From NCBI GenBank assembly GCA_021650895.1, contig CP091278.1, positions 2,385,659-2,449,658 on the forward strand: a stretch of 64,000 nucleotides of DNA. The letters are read 5' to 3'. The notes under the pieces were generated by a model. That model was not told the origin of the DNA. It made no database searches and saw nothing but the letters and a program-made list of their open reading frames with translations. The DNA comes from Candidatus Jettenia sp. GTDB lineage: Bacteria; Planctomycetota; Brocadiia; Brocadiales; Brocadiaceae. This document shows, piece after piece, positions 3,372 through 21,890 of the stretch (the first letter of the stretch is position 1; each line of letters begins with the position of its first letter). A program made the translations under genes and the position numbers.

Positions 3372-4421
3372 ATGAAAGGTATAATTGCCATAGTATTAAG
3401 TATGTTTCTCCTGTTTACTATTCCTGTTACAAAGAGTGCTTATGCTAAGGATGGATCGCAAGAAGTCTTAAATAATTTGGAGAATTTCCAAAAATCTCTC
3501 TCTGGCTGGATGAAGAATTTCGATACCTTGAGCAGTCAATTTGAGACGCTTCAGAAGAATGTAAACGAGAGTTTAGCTCCTCTTGGTGGAATTTCGAAAG
3601 ATATTAAAGGGATGCAAGAGAGGTTGGATTCAGTTCTTCCAAGAGTAATGGCCATTGAGAGAAGCGCCTCTGTAGCAGAGATTGGCGCCACGCTTACTTC
3701 TTTTAACGAAACCCTTGCTGTCTTAAAAAAATTACTATCTGATTTGACAAAACGCGTTGAGGATCAAGAGGTAAAAACCGCTGTGCTTGAAAAGAGATAT
3801 CAAGAGGCACAAAGACCGTTAGAACCAATAAAAAAAGCTATCGATGACCTCAGCAGATTAGTGACAGAAAAACTAGGTGAACAGGAAAAAAAGGTGACCG
3901 CTGTTGAAGAAAGCATGAAAACACGTGTGCAATCTTTCGAAGATCAAATGAAGACCCTTGGTGATTTACAAAAACAGGTAAAAAAGCTGGAAAAAGGAGT
4001 TCCGCCCCCTACCGGAACAGTAACAGCCGAGGCAGCGCAACCCCCCGTAGGCACAGAAACGGTAAAAATCGTTGAAGGCACAGAAACTGCTAGGGTGGTT
4101 GAGGAAGAGCGTGTGCCAACCCCAGAAGAAGAGGGTTTCGAAGAACTTGGGGATGATTTTTACCTGAGAAATGTAAAACTTCTTCCTTTTGGATCTTCCT
4201 CTCAGATTAGAGGCGAGATTAAGAATGTATCAGATAGAGACCAGAGCATTGTAAGATTCGCAATTAAGATTTACAACGCCTCAGACATGCTTCTCTTTAC
4301 ACAGGATTTTGCAATCAAGACTTTTAAGAAGGGTGAAATTCGAACCTTTAATGAAATTATCAGTGGATATGCACCGGTGGATATTGCAAAATACGAAATC
4401 GTTCCGAAAGGGAGATATTGA
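3372..4421 (+). CDS. Exported coiled-coil protein with C-terminal FxLYD-like domain
   Basis: 349 aa. The N-terminus (MKGIIAIVLSMFLLFTIPV... ending SAYAKD) is a Sec signal peptide, which is why the ATG at 3372 is chosen over the upstream frame extension. Residues about 30-220 are rich in heptad-like Leu/Val/Lys/Glu and should form coiled coils; a Pro/Thr/Glu linker follows; the last 90 residues (LRNVKLLPFGSSSQIRG onward, with NVSDRDQSI) resemble the immunoglobulin-like FxLYD/DUF3426 beta-sandwich. Likely periplasmic. It lies 3 bp before the FGE-like gene, so the two probably act together. Confidence 0.75.
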   Translation: MKGIIAIVLSMFLLFTIPVTKSAYAKDGSQEVLNNLENFQKSLSGWMKNFDTLSSQFETLQKNVNESLAPLGGISKDIKGMQERLDSVLPRVMAIERSASVAEIGATLTSFNETLAVLKKLLSDLTKRVEDQEVKTAVLEKRYQEAQRPLEPIKKAIDDLSRLVTEKLGEQEKKVTAVEESMKTRVQSFEDQMKTLGDLQKQVKKLEKGVPPPTGTVTAEAAQPPVGTETVKIVEGTETARVVEEERVPTPEEEGFEELGDDFYLRNVKLLPFGSSSQIRGEIKNVSDRDQSIVRFAIKIYNASDMLLFTQDFAIKTFKKGEIRTFNEIISGYAPVDIAKYEIVPKGRY

Positions 4422-4424
4422 AAA

Positions 4425-5216
4425 TTGGTTAAGCATACATATCTCATAGTATGGATTTTGTTCTGTTCTCTTTATATTCATACTTTAAAAGAATCATTGG
4501 CTGCTGAAGAGAAATATCCTGATATGGTTTTGGTACCTGCCGGTGAATTTATCATGGGTGATAGTACCTACTATGATTGGACTTTTCTCCTGGCTTATAA
4601 TATTTACGACGGGCCTGAGCACCGTGTCTATCTGGATGCTTTTTATATAGATAAATATGAAGTAACCAATGAACAATATAAGAAATTTGTAGAAGAAACG
4701 GGGCATCGCATGCCACGTTGCTGGAATGATGTCAGATTCAATCAGCCCAAGCAGCCGATTGTCGGTATTACCTGGGAAGATGCTGTTGCATATGCAACCT
4801 GGGCTGGAAAACGATTACCCACGGAGGCAGAATGGGAAAAAGCTGCACGTGGTACGGATAAGCGTGTATGGCCGTGGGGGAACAAATTTGACAAAGAGAA
4901 ATGTAATGTGTGGGAATCTGTGATCAAAGCAACAACACCGGTTGGAAAATATGAGAATGGTAAAAGCCCTTACGGATGTTATGATATGGCAGGGAATGCC
5001 TGGGAATGGTGTGCTGATTATTATGATCAAAATTATTATTACGTATCTTTACAAAAAAATCCTGCAGGTCCTGATTCCGGTCTGCAAAGGGTTGTCCGTG
5101 GTGGTAGCTTCCTATATTTTGGACATTATGCACGGTGCGCGGCGCGCTATCGGGTGCCTTGGTATGCCGAGAGTCCGCAAATTGGGTTTCGTTGTGTAAA
5201 ATCAGCGGAAAAATAA
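4425..5216 (+). CDS. Exported formylglycine-generating-enzyme (SUMF1) family protein
   Basis: 263 aa with an N-terminal hydrophobic signal (about 1-27) and a full FGE-sulfatase domain: MVLVPAGEFIMGD, GKRLPTEAEWEKAARG, YDMAGNAWEWCADYYD, RVVRGGSF and the terminal GFRCVKS. Family members include true formylglycine synthases and many with unknown roles; no sulfatase gene is nearby, so the enzymatic role is open. The start is TTG at 4425, with GGGAGAT overlapping the end of the preceding gene as ribosome binding site. Tightly coupled to the coiled-coil protein. Confidence 0.85.
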   Translation: MVKHTYLIVWILFCSLYIHTLKESLAAEEKYPDMVLVPAGEFIMGDSTYYDWTFLLAYNIYDGPEHRVYLDAFYIDKYEVTNEQYKKFVEETGHRMPRCWNDVRFNQPKQPIVGITWEDAVAYATWAGKRLPTEAEWEKAARGTDKRVWPWGNKFDKEKCNVWESVIKATTPVGKYENGKSPYGCYDMAGNAWEWCADYYDQNYYYVSLQKNPAGPDSGLQRVVRGGSFLYFGHYARCAARYRVPWYAESPQIGFRCVKSAEK

Positions 5217-14655: not shown

Positions 14656-16254
14656 TTAAATAGTATCTACTTCGTTAAATACATTTGTGGTAAAAACATA
14701 AAATTCCATTCCATCGTCTTTCCATGCGTCTTTTGGCAATCCCGCTTTTTGGCAAAGATGCTGTAAGGTTTCTATTCTGTCCCATCCTTCCTCAATCGCA
14801 ATTTGTGGCAAAAATACGGCATGAGCAAGCCCTTTACGTATAAGAATACCTTCTTTACCCGGGAGAAAATCAACGGGCCTGTTAATCTTTTTTAGCTCAC
14901 TCAAAACTGAAATCTCTATAATAATATCAGATATCTCTTGAGTCTCTACAGGATTAAATCGGCGGTCACCGGAAGATGAGTTGATGGTATTTTCTACTAC
15001 GCCTTGGAAGAGTGCTCTCTTCGGCAGAACATATCCCATACACCCCCGAAGTTCACCGCGTTTTTTTAGTGTTACAAAAACTCCATAGTTCTTTTTTAAT
15101 TTTGGTGTAACGGTACGCTCTATAGGGGTTAAATCGGGCGGAATACCTGTTCTTAGGTAAGTTTGCAAGGTATTTCTGGCAAGAGACAATAAACGTATTT
15201 TTTCTTCACTTGTTAAACAAAAAGGTGGATGTTTTTCCGAAGGATCTAAAGAATCTAATGATGGTGCATAATGACCAGATTTAGTTTCCGGAAGTTTTGT
15301 AAATATAATTGATGCATAGCTTACCGAAAAAGAAAAGTTGTTGGATTGGCGTCCGGATGTATCATAGTTTAAAATTTCACCCTGTGCATTTTCAGGTAAT
15401 AATTTTAAAAGCAAAGCGATTGGGATGATACCGCATGTGTTTATTCCTGTTTCCTTTCTGTATGTTCTTAATCCATGAAAATCTTTTGAAAGAATTTTTT
15501 CAAATGCCCCATAATCCAAGGCTTTGATATTTTTTTCAATATTTGTTTTAAAGGGAACATAGCCGTACCCTTCTCCATAATGGGTAAAATCAGAACTTAC
15601 TACTACCAGTGTTTTATCATTTAGTAATGGCCGAATAGCATTAGCAATCTGATCAAAATCGCCATCTACTAATATACCGACCATAATAGGGACTAAGGTA
15701 AAATTACCCAGAGATAGCTGCAAAAAGGGCAATTGTGTTTCTAAAGAATGTTCTCCGCTATATGCCCCTTCATATGATCCAAAAAGCGTTGTAGTTTTTT
15801 GAGGTGTGGTTGGTGATGAGCCTTTTGCGAAGGTAAATAAATAGTTACATGCTTCCTGATCGACAGGGATAAGACCTAAGGGTGTTTTAAAATTTTTTGC
15901 CTTAAGAATTGAAACGCCCCGGAAACGCTTGCCACTCGAGAAATGGCTGGGGGATAATAAGATAACCCGGGTAAACTCGTAGCCTTTAATGCTTTTATAT
16001 CCATATGCTGCTACCTGGCCGGAATATTGATATCCGGCGTGGGGAGAAATGACAGCCAGGGGTTTACCTTTGTCTGGTTGCTTCGGTATGTTCTTGAAGA
16101 AAGTATTAATTTGTCCTTTTAAGACATTTTCATTTTCAGAATAGAAACGTCCTGCTACCTGAGGCTCCCAAACTTCTTGTAGTTCTGTCTGTGCAAATAA
16201 GATAGAATTTGATAAGACTATGAGAAAAAAAACAAAAAGGGATAAAGATCTCAT
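14656..16254 (-). CDS. Exported MEMO-AMMECR1 fusion protein
   Basis: 532 aa. After a clear signal peptide (MRSLSLFVFFLIVLSNSILF-AQ) comes a MEMO domain (about 30-310) with the conserved His-bearing blocks SPHAGYQYSG, LSPSHFSSGKRF and SDFTHYGEGYGY, then an AMMECR1 domain (about 365-530) with GVFVTLKKRGELRGCMGY. MEMO and AMMECR1 are parts B and A of the AmmeMemoRadiSam set; here they are one polypeptide that appears to be exported. The ATG at 16254 is chosen because AAGGA precedes it and it begins the signal. It follows the DedA-like gene by 10 bp. Confidence 0.85.
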   Translation of the reverse strand: MRSLSLFVFFLIVLSNSILFAQTELQEVWEPQVAGRFYSENENVLKGQINTFFKNIPKQPDKGKPLAVISPHAGYQYSGQVAAYGYKSIKGYEFTRVILLSPSHFSSGKRFRGVSILKAKNFKTPLGLIPVDQEACNYLFTFAKGSSPTTPQKTTTLFGSYEGAYSGEHSLETQLPFLQLSLGNFTLVPIMVGILVDGDFDQIANAIRPLLNDKTLVVVSSDFTHYGEGYGYVPFKTNIEKNIKALDYGAFEKILSKDFHGLRTYRKETGINTCGIIPIALLLKLLPENAQGEILNYDTSGRQSNNFSFSVSYASIIFTKLPETKSGHYAPSLDSLDPSEKHPPFCLTSEEKIRLLSLARNTLQTYLRTGIPPDLTPIERTVTPKLKKNYGVFVTLKKRGELRGCMGYVLPKRALFQGVVENTINSSSGDRRFNPVETQEISDIIIEISVLSELKKINRPVDFLPGKEGILIRKGLAHAVFLPQIAIEEGWDRIETLQHLCQKAGLPKDAWKDDGMEFYVFTTNVFNEVDTI

Positions 16255-16264
16255 GATGTTTTCC

Positions 16265-16894
16265 TTATGTGAGTAATTTGATGACGACAAAACCAGCAAC
16301 CAGTAATATTACAAAAGCGATAGAGATTATATTAAAGTATTTATCTATAAAATCCTTAATTTTTGGTCCAAACACATAGGTAAGTGCTGCTATGATGAAA
16401 AACCGTCCGGAACGGCTCACTACTGATGCTATGATAAATGTCCAAATATTGATCTTACAGACGCCTGCTGCAATAGTAAAGACCTTGTAAGGAATAGGCG
16501 TGAATCCGGCTATGGCTACAGCAATAAAGGCGTTAGTATTATATTTTTCTTTGACAAAATTAAATTTATCGGTTATCCCATAGAAATTAAGGATAGGCAG
16601 CCCCAGGTATTCAAAGAATTGATATCCAATAAAATAACCAAAACAGCCACCTAATACAGATCCGGCAGAGCAGATTGCCGCATATTTGAAAGATTTTTTG
16701 GGAATTGAGAATGCAAGCGCCATAAGGAGCACATCAGGGGGTATCGGAAAAAAGGATGATTCGCAAAAAGCCAGTGCAAAAAGAGCAAAAGCCCCATAAG
16801 GGGTATGGGCCCAGTGCAGTGTCCACTCATAAAGCCTTCTGTGCAGACCTGCTTTTTTAACCTGTGATAATTCCACAGCTTCTTCATACTTCAT
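16265..16894 (-). CDS. DedA/VTT-domain membrane protein (YqaA-like)
   Basis: 209 aa with about five hydrophobic segments. The VTT core is seen in SSFFPIPPDVLLMALAF (near 48), GSVLGGCFGYFIGYQFFEY, FTPIPYKVFTIAAGV and SRSGRFFIIAALTYVFG. Family members move lipids or help maintain membrane potential. GAGGG precedes the ATG. It is first in a three-gene minus-strand unit with the MEMO-AMMECR1 and AMMECR1 genes. Confidence 0.85.
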   Translation of the reverse strand: MKYEEAVELSQVKKAGLHRRLYEWTLHWAHTPYGAFALFALAFCESSFFPIPPDVLLMALAFSIPKKSFKYAAICSAGSVLGGCFGYFIGYQFFEYLGLPILNFYGITDKFNFVKEKYNTNAFIAVAIAGFTPIPYKVFTIAAGVCKINIWTFIIASVVSRSGRFFIIAALTYVFGPKIKDFIDKYFNIISIAFVILLVAGFVVIKLLT

Positions 16895-17299: not shown

Positions 17300-18958
17300 T
17301 TGCGAAGTGACACGATTACGAAGGGTCTCGAGCGGGTTCCGGCCCGGGCGCTCTTATACGCAACAGGTTTGAGCAGGGAAGATTTGGGAAAACCCTTTAT
17401 AGGAATAGCGAGTAGTTTTACAGACCTTATTCCCGGACATGTGCATATGCGGTCTTTGGAAAGGGCGATTGAAAAGGGGATTCATGCTGGTGGTGGTATT
17501 AGCTTCATCTTTGGTGTGCCTGGTATTTGTGATGGGATTGCAATGGGGCATGATGGTATGCGTTATTCGCTTGCTTCCAGGGACCTTATTGCTGATATTA
17601 TCGAATGTGTAGTAAGCGCCCATTGTTTGGATGGGCTGATAATGCTGACAAATTGCGATAAAATTACCCCTGGTATGTTGATGGGTATTGCCCGGTTAGA
17701 TATACCGGGAATTGTTGTAACGGCTGGGCCTATGATCTCTGGGCGTTATGGAAAGCAAAAGTTATCGTTAGTGAAGGATACCTTTGAAGCAGTAGGAAGG
17801 CGACGGAGGGGCGAGATTAATGACAATGAGTTATCCTGTTTGGAGATGGATGCTTGTCCGGGGCCTGGTTCCTGTCAGGGGCTCTATACGGCCAATACTA
17901 TGGCTTGTGTGTCTGAAGCGCTTGGAATGTCATTGCCGCGGTGTGCTGCGTCATTAGCAATTTCTTCTGAAAAGGAGCGGATTGCATATAAAAGCGGGCA
18001 GCAGGTGGTGGAGCTTGTGAGAAATGGTGTTACTGCCAGAAAAATTATGATTCAAAAAGCGTTTGAAAATGCTATTATGGTTGATATGGCGTTAGGCGGT
18101 TCTACAAATAGCTGTTTACATATTCCCGCCATTGCAAAAGAGGCTGGCATAGAGATGGATCTGAAATTGTTTGATACAATCAGTGCAAGAACCCCTCATA
18201 TAACGAGCTTACAGCCAGGCGGTGAATACTTACTGGAAGATTTATATTATGCTGGCGGTATTCCGGCGGTTATGAAGCGTTTGTATAATGATCTGCACGA
18301 TTGCTCAACGGTGAGCGGCTTAAGCATAAAGGAAATTGCAAAAGCAGCGGAAATTTGCGATGGAGATATTATTCAAACAAAAGAAAAGGCATATCACAAA
18401 GAGGGTGGAATCGCCATTTTATACGGAAATTTAGCTCCTGATGGCGCTGTGGTTAAACAGAGCGCTGTATCAGAAAAGATGATGCGATTTCGTGGTACGG
18501 CTAAAGTATTTGATAGTGAAGAAGTTGCAATGAAGGCAATTATGGGTTCGCAAATCAGCAAAGGTACTGTGGTGGTAATACGCTACGAGGGACCACGCGG
18601 GGGACCGGGAATGAGAGAGATGTTGGCTCCTACAGCGGCGCTTGTGGGTATGGGTTTAGATGAATCTGTAGCATTAATTACTGATGGCCGATTTTCGGGA
18701 GGAACTCAGGGTCCCTGTATTGGTCATATATCTCCGGAGGCAATGATTGGCGGGCCTATTGCGCTGGTAGAGGACGGCGATGAGATAACTATCGATATTC
18801 CAAATCGGAAATTAGATTTGCATGTAACGGAGGAGGTGCTTGCACAACGCAAGGCAAGATGGATACCTCCTAAACCAAGGATAACCCGAGGCCTATTAGC
18901 TCGATATGCAAAATGTGTAACATCTGCGGATAAAGGGGCTGTGTTGATGGCGGACTAG
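17300..18958 (+). CDS. ilvD: Dihydroxy-acid dehydratase
   Basis: 552 aa, the usual length. Converts 2,3-dihydroxy-3-methylbutanoate (or its methylpentanoate homologue) to the keto acid in branched-chain amino acid synthesis. The Fe-S ligating blocks [14 protein letters not shown] and [18 protein letters not shown] are intact, as are [12 protein letters not shown] and [15 protein letters not shown]. The start is TTG at 17300, with GAAAGGTG before it. Other ilv/leu genes are not nearby. Confidence 0.95.
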
Positions 18959-18992: not shown

Positions 18993-19066
18993 TACCCGGT
19001 GGTGTAATGGTAACACTAGAGATTTTGGCTCTCTCATTGGAGGTTCGAGTCCTCCCCGGGTAGCCA
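18993..19066 (+). tRNA. tRNA-Gln (anticodon UUG)
   Basis: A complete cloverleaf: acceptor UACCCGG/CCGGGUA, D-stem GUGU/ACAC, anticodon stem AGAGA/UCUCU with loop UUUUGGC (anticodon UUG), 4-nt variable region, T-stem GGAGG/CCUCC with loop UUCGAGU, discriminator G and an encoded CCA at 19064-19066. It lies 34 bp after ilvD. Confidence 0.93.
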
Positions 19067-19130: not shown

Positions 19131-19661
19131 ATGAGAAAGACCACAGCAATCATGCTTGCCGCGGGAAAAGGAACACGTATGCGGTCGTCGAGACCCAAAG
19201 TATTGCACGAGGTATGTGGCACGCCCTTTTTAGAATATGTGATTGAAGTTGTACAGGAGGCCGGGTTCTCGCAAATAATCGTTGTTGCAGGAGATAAAAA
19301 AGAATCAGTAAAAGATAATCTTAAAAAGATGTCCGTTGAAATTGCAGAGCAGTATGAGCAATTAGGAACCGCACACGCCGTCATGTCTGTTAGACACCTT
19401 CTTCCAAACAGGACGGATGCTATCATAGTATTGAATGGTGATACTCCTCTCGTCAAGCCTCAAACGTTGAAAAAATTAATCACTATAAATACCGAGACAG
19501 AAGCAGATGTAACATTATTAACGGCTTGCCTGGATAAATCACGAGGATATGGCAGGATTTCCAGAGATTTACACGGCTGTATAAAAGGGATTATAGAAGA
19601 AAGCGAGGCGAGTGCAGAGGGGTTAAAAATTAAAGAAATTAAGGCAGGGCTTTTTTCGTAG
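19131..19661 (+). CDS. Truncated GlmU-type nucleotidyltransferase
   Basis: 176 aa. The N-terminus is a good uridyltransferase domain: MLAAGKGTRMRSSRPKVLHE (the LxxGxGTxM...PK signature), QLGTAHAVMS and VLNGDTPLV. The protein stops at EIKAGLFS, where GlmU normally reads E-I/V-N-T-G; the second half of the uridyltransferase domain and the whole left-handed beta-helix acetyltransferase are missing, since prs starts 9 bp later. Position before prs-rplY-pth matches the gcaD(glmU)-prs-ctc-pth order of Bacillus. It is either a specialised short protein or a decayed glmU; a full enzyme is presumably elsewhere. Confidence 0.7.
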   Translation: MRKTTAIMLAAGKGTRMRSSRPKVLHEVCGTPFLEYVIEVVQEAGFSQIIVVAGDKKESVKDNLKKMSVEIAEQYEQLGTAHAVMSVRHLLPNRTDAIIVLNGDTPLVKPQTLKKLITINTETEADVTLLTACLDKSRGYGRISRDLHGCIKGIIEESEASAEGLKIKEIKAGLFS

Positions 19662-19670
19662 AAGGATAAC

Positions 19671-20639
19671 ATGGATAAAAAAAGAAGGCTCGAAGAGATA
19701 AATAATTTAAAGATATTTTCGGGAAATGCAAATTCTGTATTGGCAGAAAAAATTTGCGAACATTTATCAATTCGTCTGGGTAATGCATATGTAGGTCGTT
19801 TTCCGGACGGAGAAATTGATCTGAAGGTAAATGAGGATGTCCGTGGCGCTGATGTGTTTCTTGTACAACCGACATGTCCTCCGGTGAATGAAAATTTAGC
19901 AGAATTGCTTATATTTATAGACTGTTTAAAAAGGGCATCAGCAGCACGTATTACGGCGGTATTGCCCTATTATGGGTATGCCAGAAAAGACAGAAAAGAC
20001 GAGGGCCGTGTACCAATAACAGCAAAATTAGTGGCAAATCTTATCACAGAGTCAGGCGCCGACCGCGTGCTTACCGTTGATTTGCATGCAGCTCAAATAC
20101 AGGGGTTTTTTGATATACCTGTAGACCATTTGCTTGCTTTCCCTGTACTCTCGAAGTATTTCGAAAGGCTAAAATCAGAAGATCTGGTAGTGGTAACACC
20201 TGATGTGGGTGGAATAAAACTTGCTAGAAATTATTCCAAAAAACTGGGAATAAAAATGGCTATTGTCGACAAACGAAGGGTAGGGCCGGACGAAACACAA
20301 ATTGGCTTTGTTATAGGAGATGTAAATAATAAGGATGTAATAATGATTGATGATTTAATTGCTACCGGCGGTTCCATTGTTCAGGCGGCAAATGTATTAA
20401 AAGAAAGGGGCGCAAAGGATATTTATGTTGGTGCTACCCATCCTGTATTTTGCGGGAGTGCCGTAGAAAAGCTTTCTGCTGCGCCAATAAAAGAGATTAT
20501 TGTAACCGATACGATACCGCTTACGGAAAAGGCAAAAAGTTGTCATGATAAAATTAAGGTATTATCAATTTCTGAACTTTTAGGAGATGCGATTATGAGG
20601 ATTCATCGGCACGAGTCTGTGAGTTCTCTCTTTGTTTAA
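19671..20639 (+). CDS. prs: Ribose-phosphate pyrophosphokinase
   Basis: 322 aa, full length. Makes PRPP from ribose 5-phosphate and ATP for nucleotide, His and Trp synthesis. Key blocks: VGRFPDGEIDLKV, YARKDRKDEGRVPITAKL, TVDLHAAQIQGFFDIP and the PRPP loop VIMIDDLIATGGSIVQAA. GAAGGA precedes the ATG, 9 bp after the truncated glmU gene. Confidence 0.96.
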   Translation: MDKKRRLEEINNLKIFSGNANSVLAEKICEHLSIRLGNAYVGRFPDGEIDLKVNEDVRGADVFLVQPTCPPVNENLAELLIFIDCLKRASAARITAVLPYYGYARKDRKDEGRVPITAKLVANLITESGADRVLTVDLHAAQIQGFFDIPVDHLLAFPVLSKYFERLKSEDLVVVTPDVGGIKLARNYSKKLGIKMAIVDKRRVGPDETQIGFVIGDVNNKDVIMIDDLIATGGSIVQAANVLKERGAKDIYVGATHPVFCGSAVEKLSAAPIKEIIVTDTIPLTEKAKSCHDKIKVLSISELLGDAIMRIHRHESVSSLFV

Positions 20640-20671: not shown

Positions 20672-21313
20672 ATGGAAATCTTAGAATTAAAGGCAGAAAA
20701 AAGAACAACAAAAGGGAAAAAGGTAATGAAAAGATTGCGAGAGGAAAGCCAAATCCCGGCTATTTTATATGGTCATAAATTAGATAATGTCATGCTGTGT
20801 TTTGAAGAAGGTCAATTTGCCCGTATACTCAATACTGGAGCAAGAATGGTCCGTTTAGCGTTTGATGATAAAAAAGAATCCGTACTTATAAAGGATATTC
20901 AGTATGATTACATTTCAGATCGTGTAATCCATGTGGATTTCTCCCGGATTGATCTGGATGAAAGGATTAAACTGCGGGTACCCATCGAACTCTTTGGTGA
21001 ATCTGCCGGAGTAAAGGAAGGCGGTGTGCTGACTTATGTTATGAAGGATGTAGAAGTAGAATGTCTGCCAATTGCCATACCTGAAAAAATAAAAGTAAAT
21101 ATATCGGATTTAAATCTGGGAAAAGCAATTCATGTCAAAGAATTACCTGTGCTGGAGGGTATTCAATACATATCGGATCCCGACGCAGTGATTGTATCTG
21201 TGCATCAGCCTGCAGCGGAAAAAGTTGTGCCAGAGGAAGAACTATTGGCTGAGCCTGAAGTTATTACCAAGAAGCCGAAAGAAGGGGAAGAAACAGAAGC
21301 GAAATCTGCATAA
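20672..21313 (+). CDS. rplY: Ribosomal protein L25 (Ctc/TL5 form)
   Basis: 213 aa. An N-terminal 5S-rRNA-binding L25 domain (EILELKAEKRTTKGKK, IPAILYGH, IKDIQYDYISDRVIHVDF) is followed by the C-terminal TL5 beta-domain (IELFGESAGVKEGGVL, ELPVLEGIQYISDPDAVIVS) and an acidic tail. The long form is the general-stress (Ctc) type and sits between prs and pth as in Bacillus. Confidence 0.94.
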   Translation: MEILELKAEKRTTKGKKVMKRLREESQIPAILYGHKLDNVMLCFEEGQFARILNTGARMVRLAFDDKKESVLIKDIQYDYISDRVIHVDFSRIDLDERIKLRVPIELFGESAGVKEGGVLTYVMKDVEVECLPIAIPEKIKVNISDLNLGKAIHVKELPVLEGIQYISDPDAVIVSVHQPAAEKVVPEEELLAEPEVITKKPKEGEETEAKSA

Positions 21314-21335: not shown

Positions 21336-21890
21336 ATGAAGATCATTGTTGGTCTGGGCAATCCTGGGAAAAAATATGTAAAAACAAGGCACAACCTGGG
21401 TTTTATGGTAATCGATCAATTTGCCCTGCAATTTGATATGGAATGTAATAACAAAAGATTTCAATCTCTTTTTGGTAAGAAGGTACTGGAAGATGAAGAG
21501 ATTATACTATTAAAACCACAGACATTTATGAACTTGAGCGGAGTTGCTGTAAAGGAAGCTGTAAATATGTATAAATGCGCGTTTCAAGATCTTATGATTA
21601 TCGGTGATGATTTAGATATGCCTTTAGGAAAAATGCGTATCAGGCGCTGTGGTGGTTGTGGAGGACACAGGGGCCTGGAATCTGTCGCGGCGAGCCTGGG
21701 GTCCACAAATTTTCCTCGTTTAAGGGTTGGAATAGGGAGGCCATCTGCGGGTGATCCGGGTAATTATGTCCTGTCCCCATTTCCCGGAGAAGAGGAAACT
21801 ATAGTAAAGGAATCTTTAGATAAAGCTTGTCAGGCCTTAAAAATCTGGATTTTTGAAGGGATTGAGGCGTGTATGAATAAGTTTAATTAA
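21336..21890 (+). CDS. pth: Peptidyl-tRNA hydrolase
   Basis: 184 aa from the ATG at 21336. Releases tRNA from stalled peptidyl-tRNA. Active-site residues are all visible: GLGNPGKKY (Asn10 equivalent), KTRHNLGF (catalytic His), KPQTFMNLSG (Asn68), IIGDDLDMPLGK (Asp93). The frame is open further upstream inside rplY, but the conserved MKIIVGLGNPG start fixes the gene. Confidence 0.95.
   Translation: MKIIVGLGNPGKKYVKTRHNLGFMVIDQFALQFDMECNNKRFQSLFGKKVLEDEEIILLKPQTFMNLSGVAVKEAVNMYKCAFQDLMIIGDDLDMPLGKMRIRRCGGCGGHRGLESVAASLGSTNFPRLRVGIGRPSAGDPGNYVLSPFPGEEETIVKESLDKACQALKIWIFEGIEACMNKFN

What the first reader, a model, noticed from the sequence alone, without database searches (positions are those of the whole stretch)
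19131..19661. GlmU cut short exactly before the N-T-G site
The protein ends at EIKAGLFS, where GlmU has E-I-N-T-G; prs starts 9 bp on, so there is no room for the rest. The uridyltransferase signature is intact but the sugar-binding Asn is Lys and the second Asn region is missing. Gene order glmU-prs-rplY-pth is otherwise ancient.
Basis: partly seen in the sequence, partly recalled or inferred. Interest (0 to 1): 0.5.

Follow-up and report, generated by a model that had tools for sequence, protein, structure and literature searches.

The report
Dying glmU gene, replaced elsewhere
The short GlmU gene looks like a recently broken leftover in an anammox bacterium that carries a different, archaeal-style GlmU elsewhere in its genome, and relatives show the same old gene at several stages of decay.

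Summary
In detail: a 176-codon GlmU-like ORF (19131-19661) stops 9 bp before prs and lacks the second half of the uridyltransferase. It is probably not a lysine variant or a trimmed enzyme. Relatives have a GlmU of about 315-327 codons at the same place; here about 147 internal codons are gone, so EIK-AGLFS is an N-terminal piece joined to the old C-terminus. Two sister species carry other deletions, one without a start. The genome encodes a full archaeal-type GlmU (TIGR03992, 395 aa) directly after glmM, 0.44 Mb away. Of 33 family genomes, 17 keep the prs-linked GlmU, 14 have the glmM - archaeal-type glmU pair, none both, 2 neither. Of the 16 without an intact copy, 12 keep glmU debris between tRNA-Gln and prs. 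Synonymous divergence of the pair between two genera (mean 0.38-0.40) is far below that of prs (0.69), so the pair probably moved laterally. Best reading: displacement of a normally essential gene, caught in mid-decay. The process is known; the parallel series in anammox bacteria is the interesting part. Caveats: the remnant has changed little, so its death is recent or some constraint remains; two genomes have neither gene.

The parts
19131..19661 (+). glmU remnant, 176 codons plus TAG
19131..19640 (+). Part collinear with codons 1-170 of intact relatives
19641..19658 (+). Junction codon and tail KAGLFS, matching the C-terminal end of the intact gene in G023 and G015
18993..19066 (+). tRNA-Gln (TTG), conserved left boundary of the glmU slot
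17300..18958 (+). ilvD, conserved left neighbour
19671..20639 (+). prs, conserved right neighbour
20672..21313 (+). bL25 (rplY/ctc)
21336..21890 (+). pth

Best explanation
The ORF is a recent pseudogene. Shown: relatives encode at this site a GlmU of about 315-327 codons (uridyltransferase plus a short hexapeptide stub, no acetyltransferase); here about 147 internal codons are missing; the genome carries a full-length archaeal-type bifunctional GlmU directly downstream of glmM. Inferred: a two-gene glmM - archaeal-type glmU operon entered this genus laterally, probably from the lineage of another anammox genus, took over UDP-GlcNAc synthesis and freed the old gene from selection; the old gene then lost pieces by deletion, differently in each species, while the start region of prs was kept. 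The 176-aa product, if made, should lack uridyltransferase activity, because the GlcNAc-1-P-binding residues and the second magnesium-binding Asn (N169 and N227 in E. coli numbering, recalled) are missing.
For: Intact frames of 318-349 codons (stop to stop) at the same site in relatives. Own, G002 and G001 carry three deletion states; G001 lacks the start and both ends. Own genome: archaeal-type GlmU 474.7 bits (cut-off 292.1), GlmM 602.5 (cut-off 447.55), adjacent; best solved relatives 5z09 and 2ggo, E 1.5e-75 and 2.8e-75, residues 3-392 of 395. Exclusion: of 33 family genomes 17 have the prs-linked GlmU, 14 the archaeal type, 0 both, 2 neither; of 62 order genomes 28, 29, 0 and 5. Debris between tRNA-Gln and prs in 12 of the 16 family genomes without an intact copy. 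Lateral transfer: mean synonymous difference own genus against g11, 27 pairs: prs 0.69, archaeal-type glmU 0.40, glmM 0.38; within own genus, 3 pairs, the three genes agree (0.11-0.15). Relaxed selection: own against G002, codons 1-170, 12 nonsynonymous and 6 synonymous changes (ratio 0.59) against 2 and 26 in prs, Fisher p 3e-5; 15 pairs among six intact g9 genomes give 0.10-0.24 over codons 1-171. Own carries L33F and P137S at sites with Leu in 13 of 13 and Pro in 12 of 13 intact genomes.
Against: The remnant keeps a start and an open frame in own and G002, and only 18 of 510 bases differ between them: dN 0.031 and dS 0.053, against dS 0.13-0.16 in prs and ilvD. A gene neutral since their split should have changed more, so death is recent or constraint remains. 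The 12:6 split fits neutrality (p 0.22) but also a ratio of 0.3 (p 0.12), and over codons 55-149 the own-G002 ratio is 0.21. G005 and G045 have a broken glmU and no archaeal-type gene. 3 of the 16 genomes show no debris and one only a weak hit. Within own genus the operon's flanks are also largely rearranged, so differing flanks are weak evidence of transfer. No expression data.
Confidence: 0.87

Rival explanations
1. The 176-aa protein is still made and has another role, for example as a nucleotide-binding or partner protein without catalysis.
For: Start and open frame kept in own and G002; low total divergence; ratio 0.21 over codons 55-149 between them.
Against: The C-terminal ends differ and are in different frames in own and G002; G001 has lost the start and both ends; ratio 0.59 over the whole piece; changes at near-invariant sites; other archaeal-type genomes keep only scraps.
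Confidence: 0.07
2. Loss was permitted by the TIGR03991 protein (a Bacteroidetes-type alternative GlmU) and the archaeal-type operon is incidental.
For: Own has a TIGR03991 protein at 353 bits (cut-off 225.3); 29 of 33 family genomes have one, including G005 and G045, which have a broken glmU and no archaeal-type gene.
Against: 15 of the 17 genomes with an intact prs-linked GlmU have it too, so its presence does not predict loss, whereas the archaeal-type gene and the intact prs-linked GlmU never occur together in 62 genomes.
Confidence: 0.12
3. Sequencing or assembly error, with an intact gene in the real genome.
For: Only one assembly of the own species was seen.
Against: Single-contig genome; two other species of the genus are truncated too, each with its own junction.
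Confidence: 0.01

Closest known systems
Bacterial GlmU (TIGR01173), uridyltransferase domain
   Same: Remnant residues 5-175 match model positions 2-170; signature and NGD loop kept.
   Different: Lacks the rest of the sugar and metal site and all hexapeptide repeats; 176.8 bits against a cut-off of 366.85.
Archaeal-type bifunctional GlmU (TIGR03992; Sulfolobus structures 2ggo, 5z09)
   Same: The 395-aa replacement scores 474.7 (cut-off 292.1) and aligns over residues 3-392. Positions H308, Y311, N331, K337 and K340, recalled as acetyltransferase residues of the Sulfolobus protein ST0452, are the same residues in the 5z09 alignment.
   Different: Sits behind a bacterial-type glmM (TIGR01455 602.5 bits, archaeal GlmM model 352.2 under its cut-off of 439) in an anammox bacterium; activity not tested.
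Domain-essential GlmU of Planctopirus limnophila (PMC10632474, passages read)
   Same: There only the NTP-transferase domain is essential, which fits a family whose GlmU has lost the acetyltransferase part.
   Different: In the window the essential domain itself is broken, with a replacement present.
Non-orthologous or xenologous gene displacement (general process, recalled)
   Same: Two analogous genes exclude each other and the displaced one leaves remnants.
   Different: Several species of one family show different stages of decay at one conserved site.

Membership tests
Functional bacterial GlmU | Nucleotide-binding signature and NGD loop | tested here: met
Functional bacterial GlmU | E-I-N-T-G sugar-binding region and second Mg-binding Asn (numbering recalled) | tested here: not met
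   ends at EIKAGLFS; about 147 codons of the intact form are absent
Functional bacterial GlmU | Hexapeptide acetyltransferase domain | tested here: not met
   absent; the intact 325-aa relative also covers only 2-308 of 452
Functional bacterial GlmU | Score over curated cut-off | tested here: not met
   176.8 against 366.85; the intact 325-aa relative also stays under it with 307.2
Pseudogene | Shortened against orthologues at the same site | tested here: met
Pseudogene | Different disabling changes in close relatives | tested here: met
   three deletion states in three congeners
Pseudogene | Relaxed selection | tested here: inconclusive
   ratio 0.59 over codons 1-170, but 0.21 over 55-149 and few changes in all
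Pseudogene | No functional product | not testable with these tools
   needs proteomics or an assay
Archaeal-type GlmU (TIGR03992), the replacement | Full length and over cut-off | tested here: met
   474.7 against 292.1, model 2-393 of 393
Archaeal-type GlmU (TIGR03992), the replacement | Makes UDP-GlcNAc in this organism | not testable with these tools

The most novel reading that the evidence does not exclude
A compact glmM - archaeal-type glmU operon (about 2.55 kb) has spread laterally through about a dozen anammox species of two genera and evicted the native prs-linked glmU separately in many of them, leaving a natural time series of one normally essential gene dying in parallel. In the protein tree these copies lie among those of another anammox family, a possible source.
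Probability: 0.55. Interest if true: 0.5.

Novelty: new member of a known kind. Interest (0 to 1): 0.38.

Why it matters
UDP-GlcNAc synthesis is normally essential, yet the classic gene is being lost repeatedly in this family. A series of decay states at one conserved site, with a likely replacement in hand, makes it possible to ask how fast and in what order an essential gene dies once a substitute arrives. It also matters for annotation: reconstructions of the anammox cell-wall pathway need the archaeal-type enzyme in such genomes, not the short prs-linked ORF. And it shows that an apparent active-site substitution at the end of a short gene can be a deletion junction.

Tried and rejected
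Considered and rejected: an Asn-to-Lys variant (the lysine lies at a deletion junction); assembly error (sister genomes); an unrelated small NTP transferase (72% identity to the intact gene of G007, which lies beside prs there too).

Led nowhere: the search for related loci with prs against genome contigs kept 80 loci of 51-59% identity, none with a title naming an anammox genus, so the genera could not be named that way. Seven literature searches listed no paper whose title or abstract start describes this loss; I read passages of PMC10632474 and PMC4432595 (no word beginning with 'glm' in its main text) and saw only listings of the others.

Not done: structure prediction (it would not separate the rivals); a species tree; the prs neighbourhood in family f4; inspection of the partial GlmU of G061 (211-aa frame), counted as present. 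G010, G014 and G047 were counted as intact although their genes run into contig ends. The tree holds 28 of the 29 archaeal-type genomes (G058 left out because its gene is split). The intact pairs come from six genomes of one genus.

Full report
What is in the window. A 176-codon ORF at 19131-19661 (+) ends with EIKAGLFS and TAG; prs starts at 19671. It matches positions 2-170 of the 452-position GlmU model TIGR01173, 176.8 bits against a cut-off of 366.85, and aligns to residue 174/175 with solved GlmU chains. To its left lie ilvD and tRNA-Gln(TTG), to its right prs, bL25 and pth. The genome is one contig of 3.82 Mb with two matches to the hydrazine synthase alpha domain PF18582, found in 40 of 62 genomes of the order and in none of 14 control genomes, so it is very probably an anammox bacterium. 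The tools gave no names; that the own genus is Jettenia, g11 Brocadia, g10 Kuenenia and f4 Scalinduaceae is a guess from recall and genome sizes.

What the intact gene looks like. In seven family loci read from start to stop the gene has 315-327 codons: uridyltransferase domain plus a short hexapeptide stub, followed closely by prs. The G023 form covers only positions 2-308 of the GlmU model, so the acetyltransferase part is missing already there. This fits a report that in Planctopirus limnophila only the NTP-transferase domain of GlmU is essential (PMC10632474, passages). A TIGR03991 protein, over its cut-off in 29 of 33 family genomes, could supply the acetyltransferase (inference).

The deletion. 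Codons 1-170 of the ORF are collinear with intact relatives. The last codons, AAGGCAGGGCTTTTTTC, match the end of the intact gene in G023 and G015 (AAAGCAGGGCTTTTTTC, 16 of 17). About 147 codons are therefore missing, and the lysine in place of the sugar-binding Asn is a junction residue. Sister G002 (92.9% identical over 170 codons) breaks nearly at the same place but goes on with other bases and ends in another frame; sister G001 matches only codons 55 to about 144-149 and has lost the start. All three share TTTCGTAGAAGGATAACATGG up to the prs start. One ancestral deletion with later ones, or separate deletions, are both possible.

Decay series. Sixteen of 33 family genomes lack an intact copy: the 14 with the archaeal-type gene plus G005 and G045. 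In all 16, and in three intact genomes checked alike, tRNA-Gln precedes prs. Debris of glmU is found in 12 of the 16: G000, G001, G002, G005, G013, G022, G041, G042, G044 and G045, G039 and G043. G016 gives only a weak hit (E about 0.03); G009, G017 and G040 none. The distance from tRNA to prs is 1034-1044 bp in the three intact genomes and 143-679 bp in the 16. Different pieces survive, for example codons 5-42 and 268-322 in G013, 130-176 and 280-322 in G044, 5-35 in G045.

The replacement. The own genome encodes a 395-aa protein with 474.7 bits to the archaeal-type bifunctional GlmU model TIGR03992 (cut-off 292.1), directly downstream of a 452-aa GlmM (602.5 bits to TIGR01455, cut-off 447.55). 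Best solved relatives are Sulfolobus chains 5z09 and 2ggo (E 1.5e-75 and 2.8e-75). Of 33 family genomes, 17 have the prs-linked GlmU, 14 the archaeal type (E below 1e-100), none both, 2 (G005, G045) neither (Fisher p 1.5e-7). A close relative of the own GlmM (E at most 1e-40) is found in the same 14, next to the archaeal-type gene, with 238 bp between them in G017 and glmM in two frames in G039. Of 62 order genomes, 28 have the bacterial type (G061 only as a 211-aa frame; the four remnants of G000, G001, G002 and G005 not counted), 29 the archaeal type, none both, 5 neither (G005, G030, G045, G052, G053; p 7e-13). These p values ignore relatedness. G011 and G019, in the genus of G016, and G020, in genus g11, keep the old gene.

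Lateral transfer. Between the own genome and nine g11 genomes, dS (Nei-Gojobori) is 1.3-2.4 for prs (two saturated) and 1.6-3.2 for ilvD, partly covered (two saturated), but 0.41-0.84 for the archaeal-type glmU and 0.36-0.84 for glmM (eight genomes). Controls: the proportion of synonymous sites that differ, for prs, archaeal-type glmU and glmM, is 0.12-0.13, 0.12-0.14 and 0.11-0.15 within the own genus (3 pairs), on average 0.69, 0.40 and 0.38 between own genus and g11 (27 pairs), 0.57, 0.39 and 0.39 within g11 (36 pairs, fewer for glmM), and 0.76, 0.75 and 0.75 for G016 against the other 12. So own-genus copies are no further from g11 copies than those are from each other; some close g11 pairs show no excess in prs (for example G022-G042 0.39, 0.40, 0.41). 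DNA similarity of the own region to G016, G040 and G037 covers only the operon of about 2.55 kb; G013, G022 and G042 add one or two pieces of 53-262 bp; G044 is only a 3-kb contig. This is weak evidence by itself, because the flanks are also largely rearranged between own, G001 and G002. In the protein tree (28 of 29 genomes) the own genus lies inside g11 (87/83, not starred), and in the midpoint-rooted drawing the joint g1+g11 group (100/99) lies among f4 branches (93/65 and 94/92, not starred). A step from g11 into the own genus and an f4-like source are therefore possible, not shown.

Selection on the remnant. Own against G002, codons 1-170: 12 nonsynonymous and 6 synonymous changes, ratio 0.59; prs 2 and 26, ratio 0.02; ilvD 6.3 and 35.7, ratio 0.05. 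Fifteen pairs among six intact g9 genomes give 0.10-0.24 over codons 1-171. The 12:6 split fits neutrality (p 0.22); it is unlikely at a ratio of 0.15 (p 0.004) or 0.2 (p 0.02), not at 0.3 (p 0.12). Against this, only 18 of 510 bases differ, fewer than expected for a gene neutral since the split, and over codons 55-149 the ratio is 0.21. I read this as recent death; lasting weak constraint is not excluded. Judged against 13 intact genomes, conserved sites are hit: L33F (13 of 13 Leu) and P137S (12 of 13 Pro) in own, E122G (13 of 13) in G002, G103D (13 of 13) and L107P (12 of 13) in G001.

Verdict. The ORF is most likely a young pseudogene left when a laterally acquired glmM - archaeal-type glmU pair displaced the prs-linked glmU. 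Shown: truncation, junction, sister states, replacement gene, mutual exclusion, debris, low divergence of the operon between genera. Inferred: cause, order of events and enzyme activities. Open: G005, with a broken glmU and no archaeal-type gene in a 60-contig assembly rated 99% complete, and G045 (510 contigs).

Noticed in passing
14656-16299 (-): A 547-aa ORF joins a Memo-like domain (PF01875) to an AMMECR1 domain (PF01871).
   Followed up: no
L247 (G005:C58:40000-48000), about 3962-4581 (-): G005 has a broken glmU (codons 1-122, 125-148 and 278-322 recognisable) and no archaeal-type GlmU; it has a TIGR03991 protein.
   Followed up: partly
L237 7237-8229 and 3110-3505 (own genome, near the glmM - glmU pair): Two ORFs look by eye like REP- or IS200-type transposases; no family search was made.
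   Followed up: no
own genome C1:582143-582457 and C1:1877131-1877445: Two hydrazine synthase alpha matches, one in a frame of 549 and one of 826 aa; several relatives also have two matches.
   Followed up: no
G039:C127:17044-18398: The glmM beside the archaeal-type glmU is split into two frames in G039: frameshift or assembly error.
   Followed up: no
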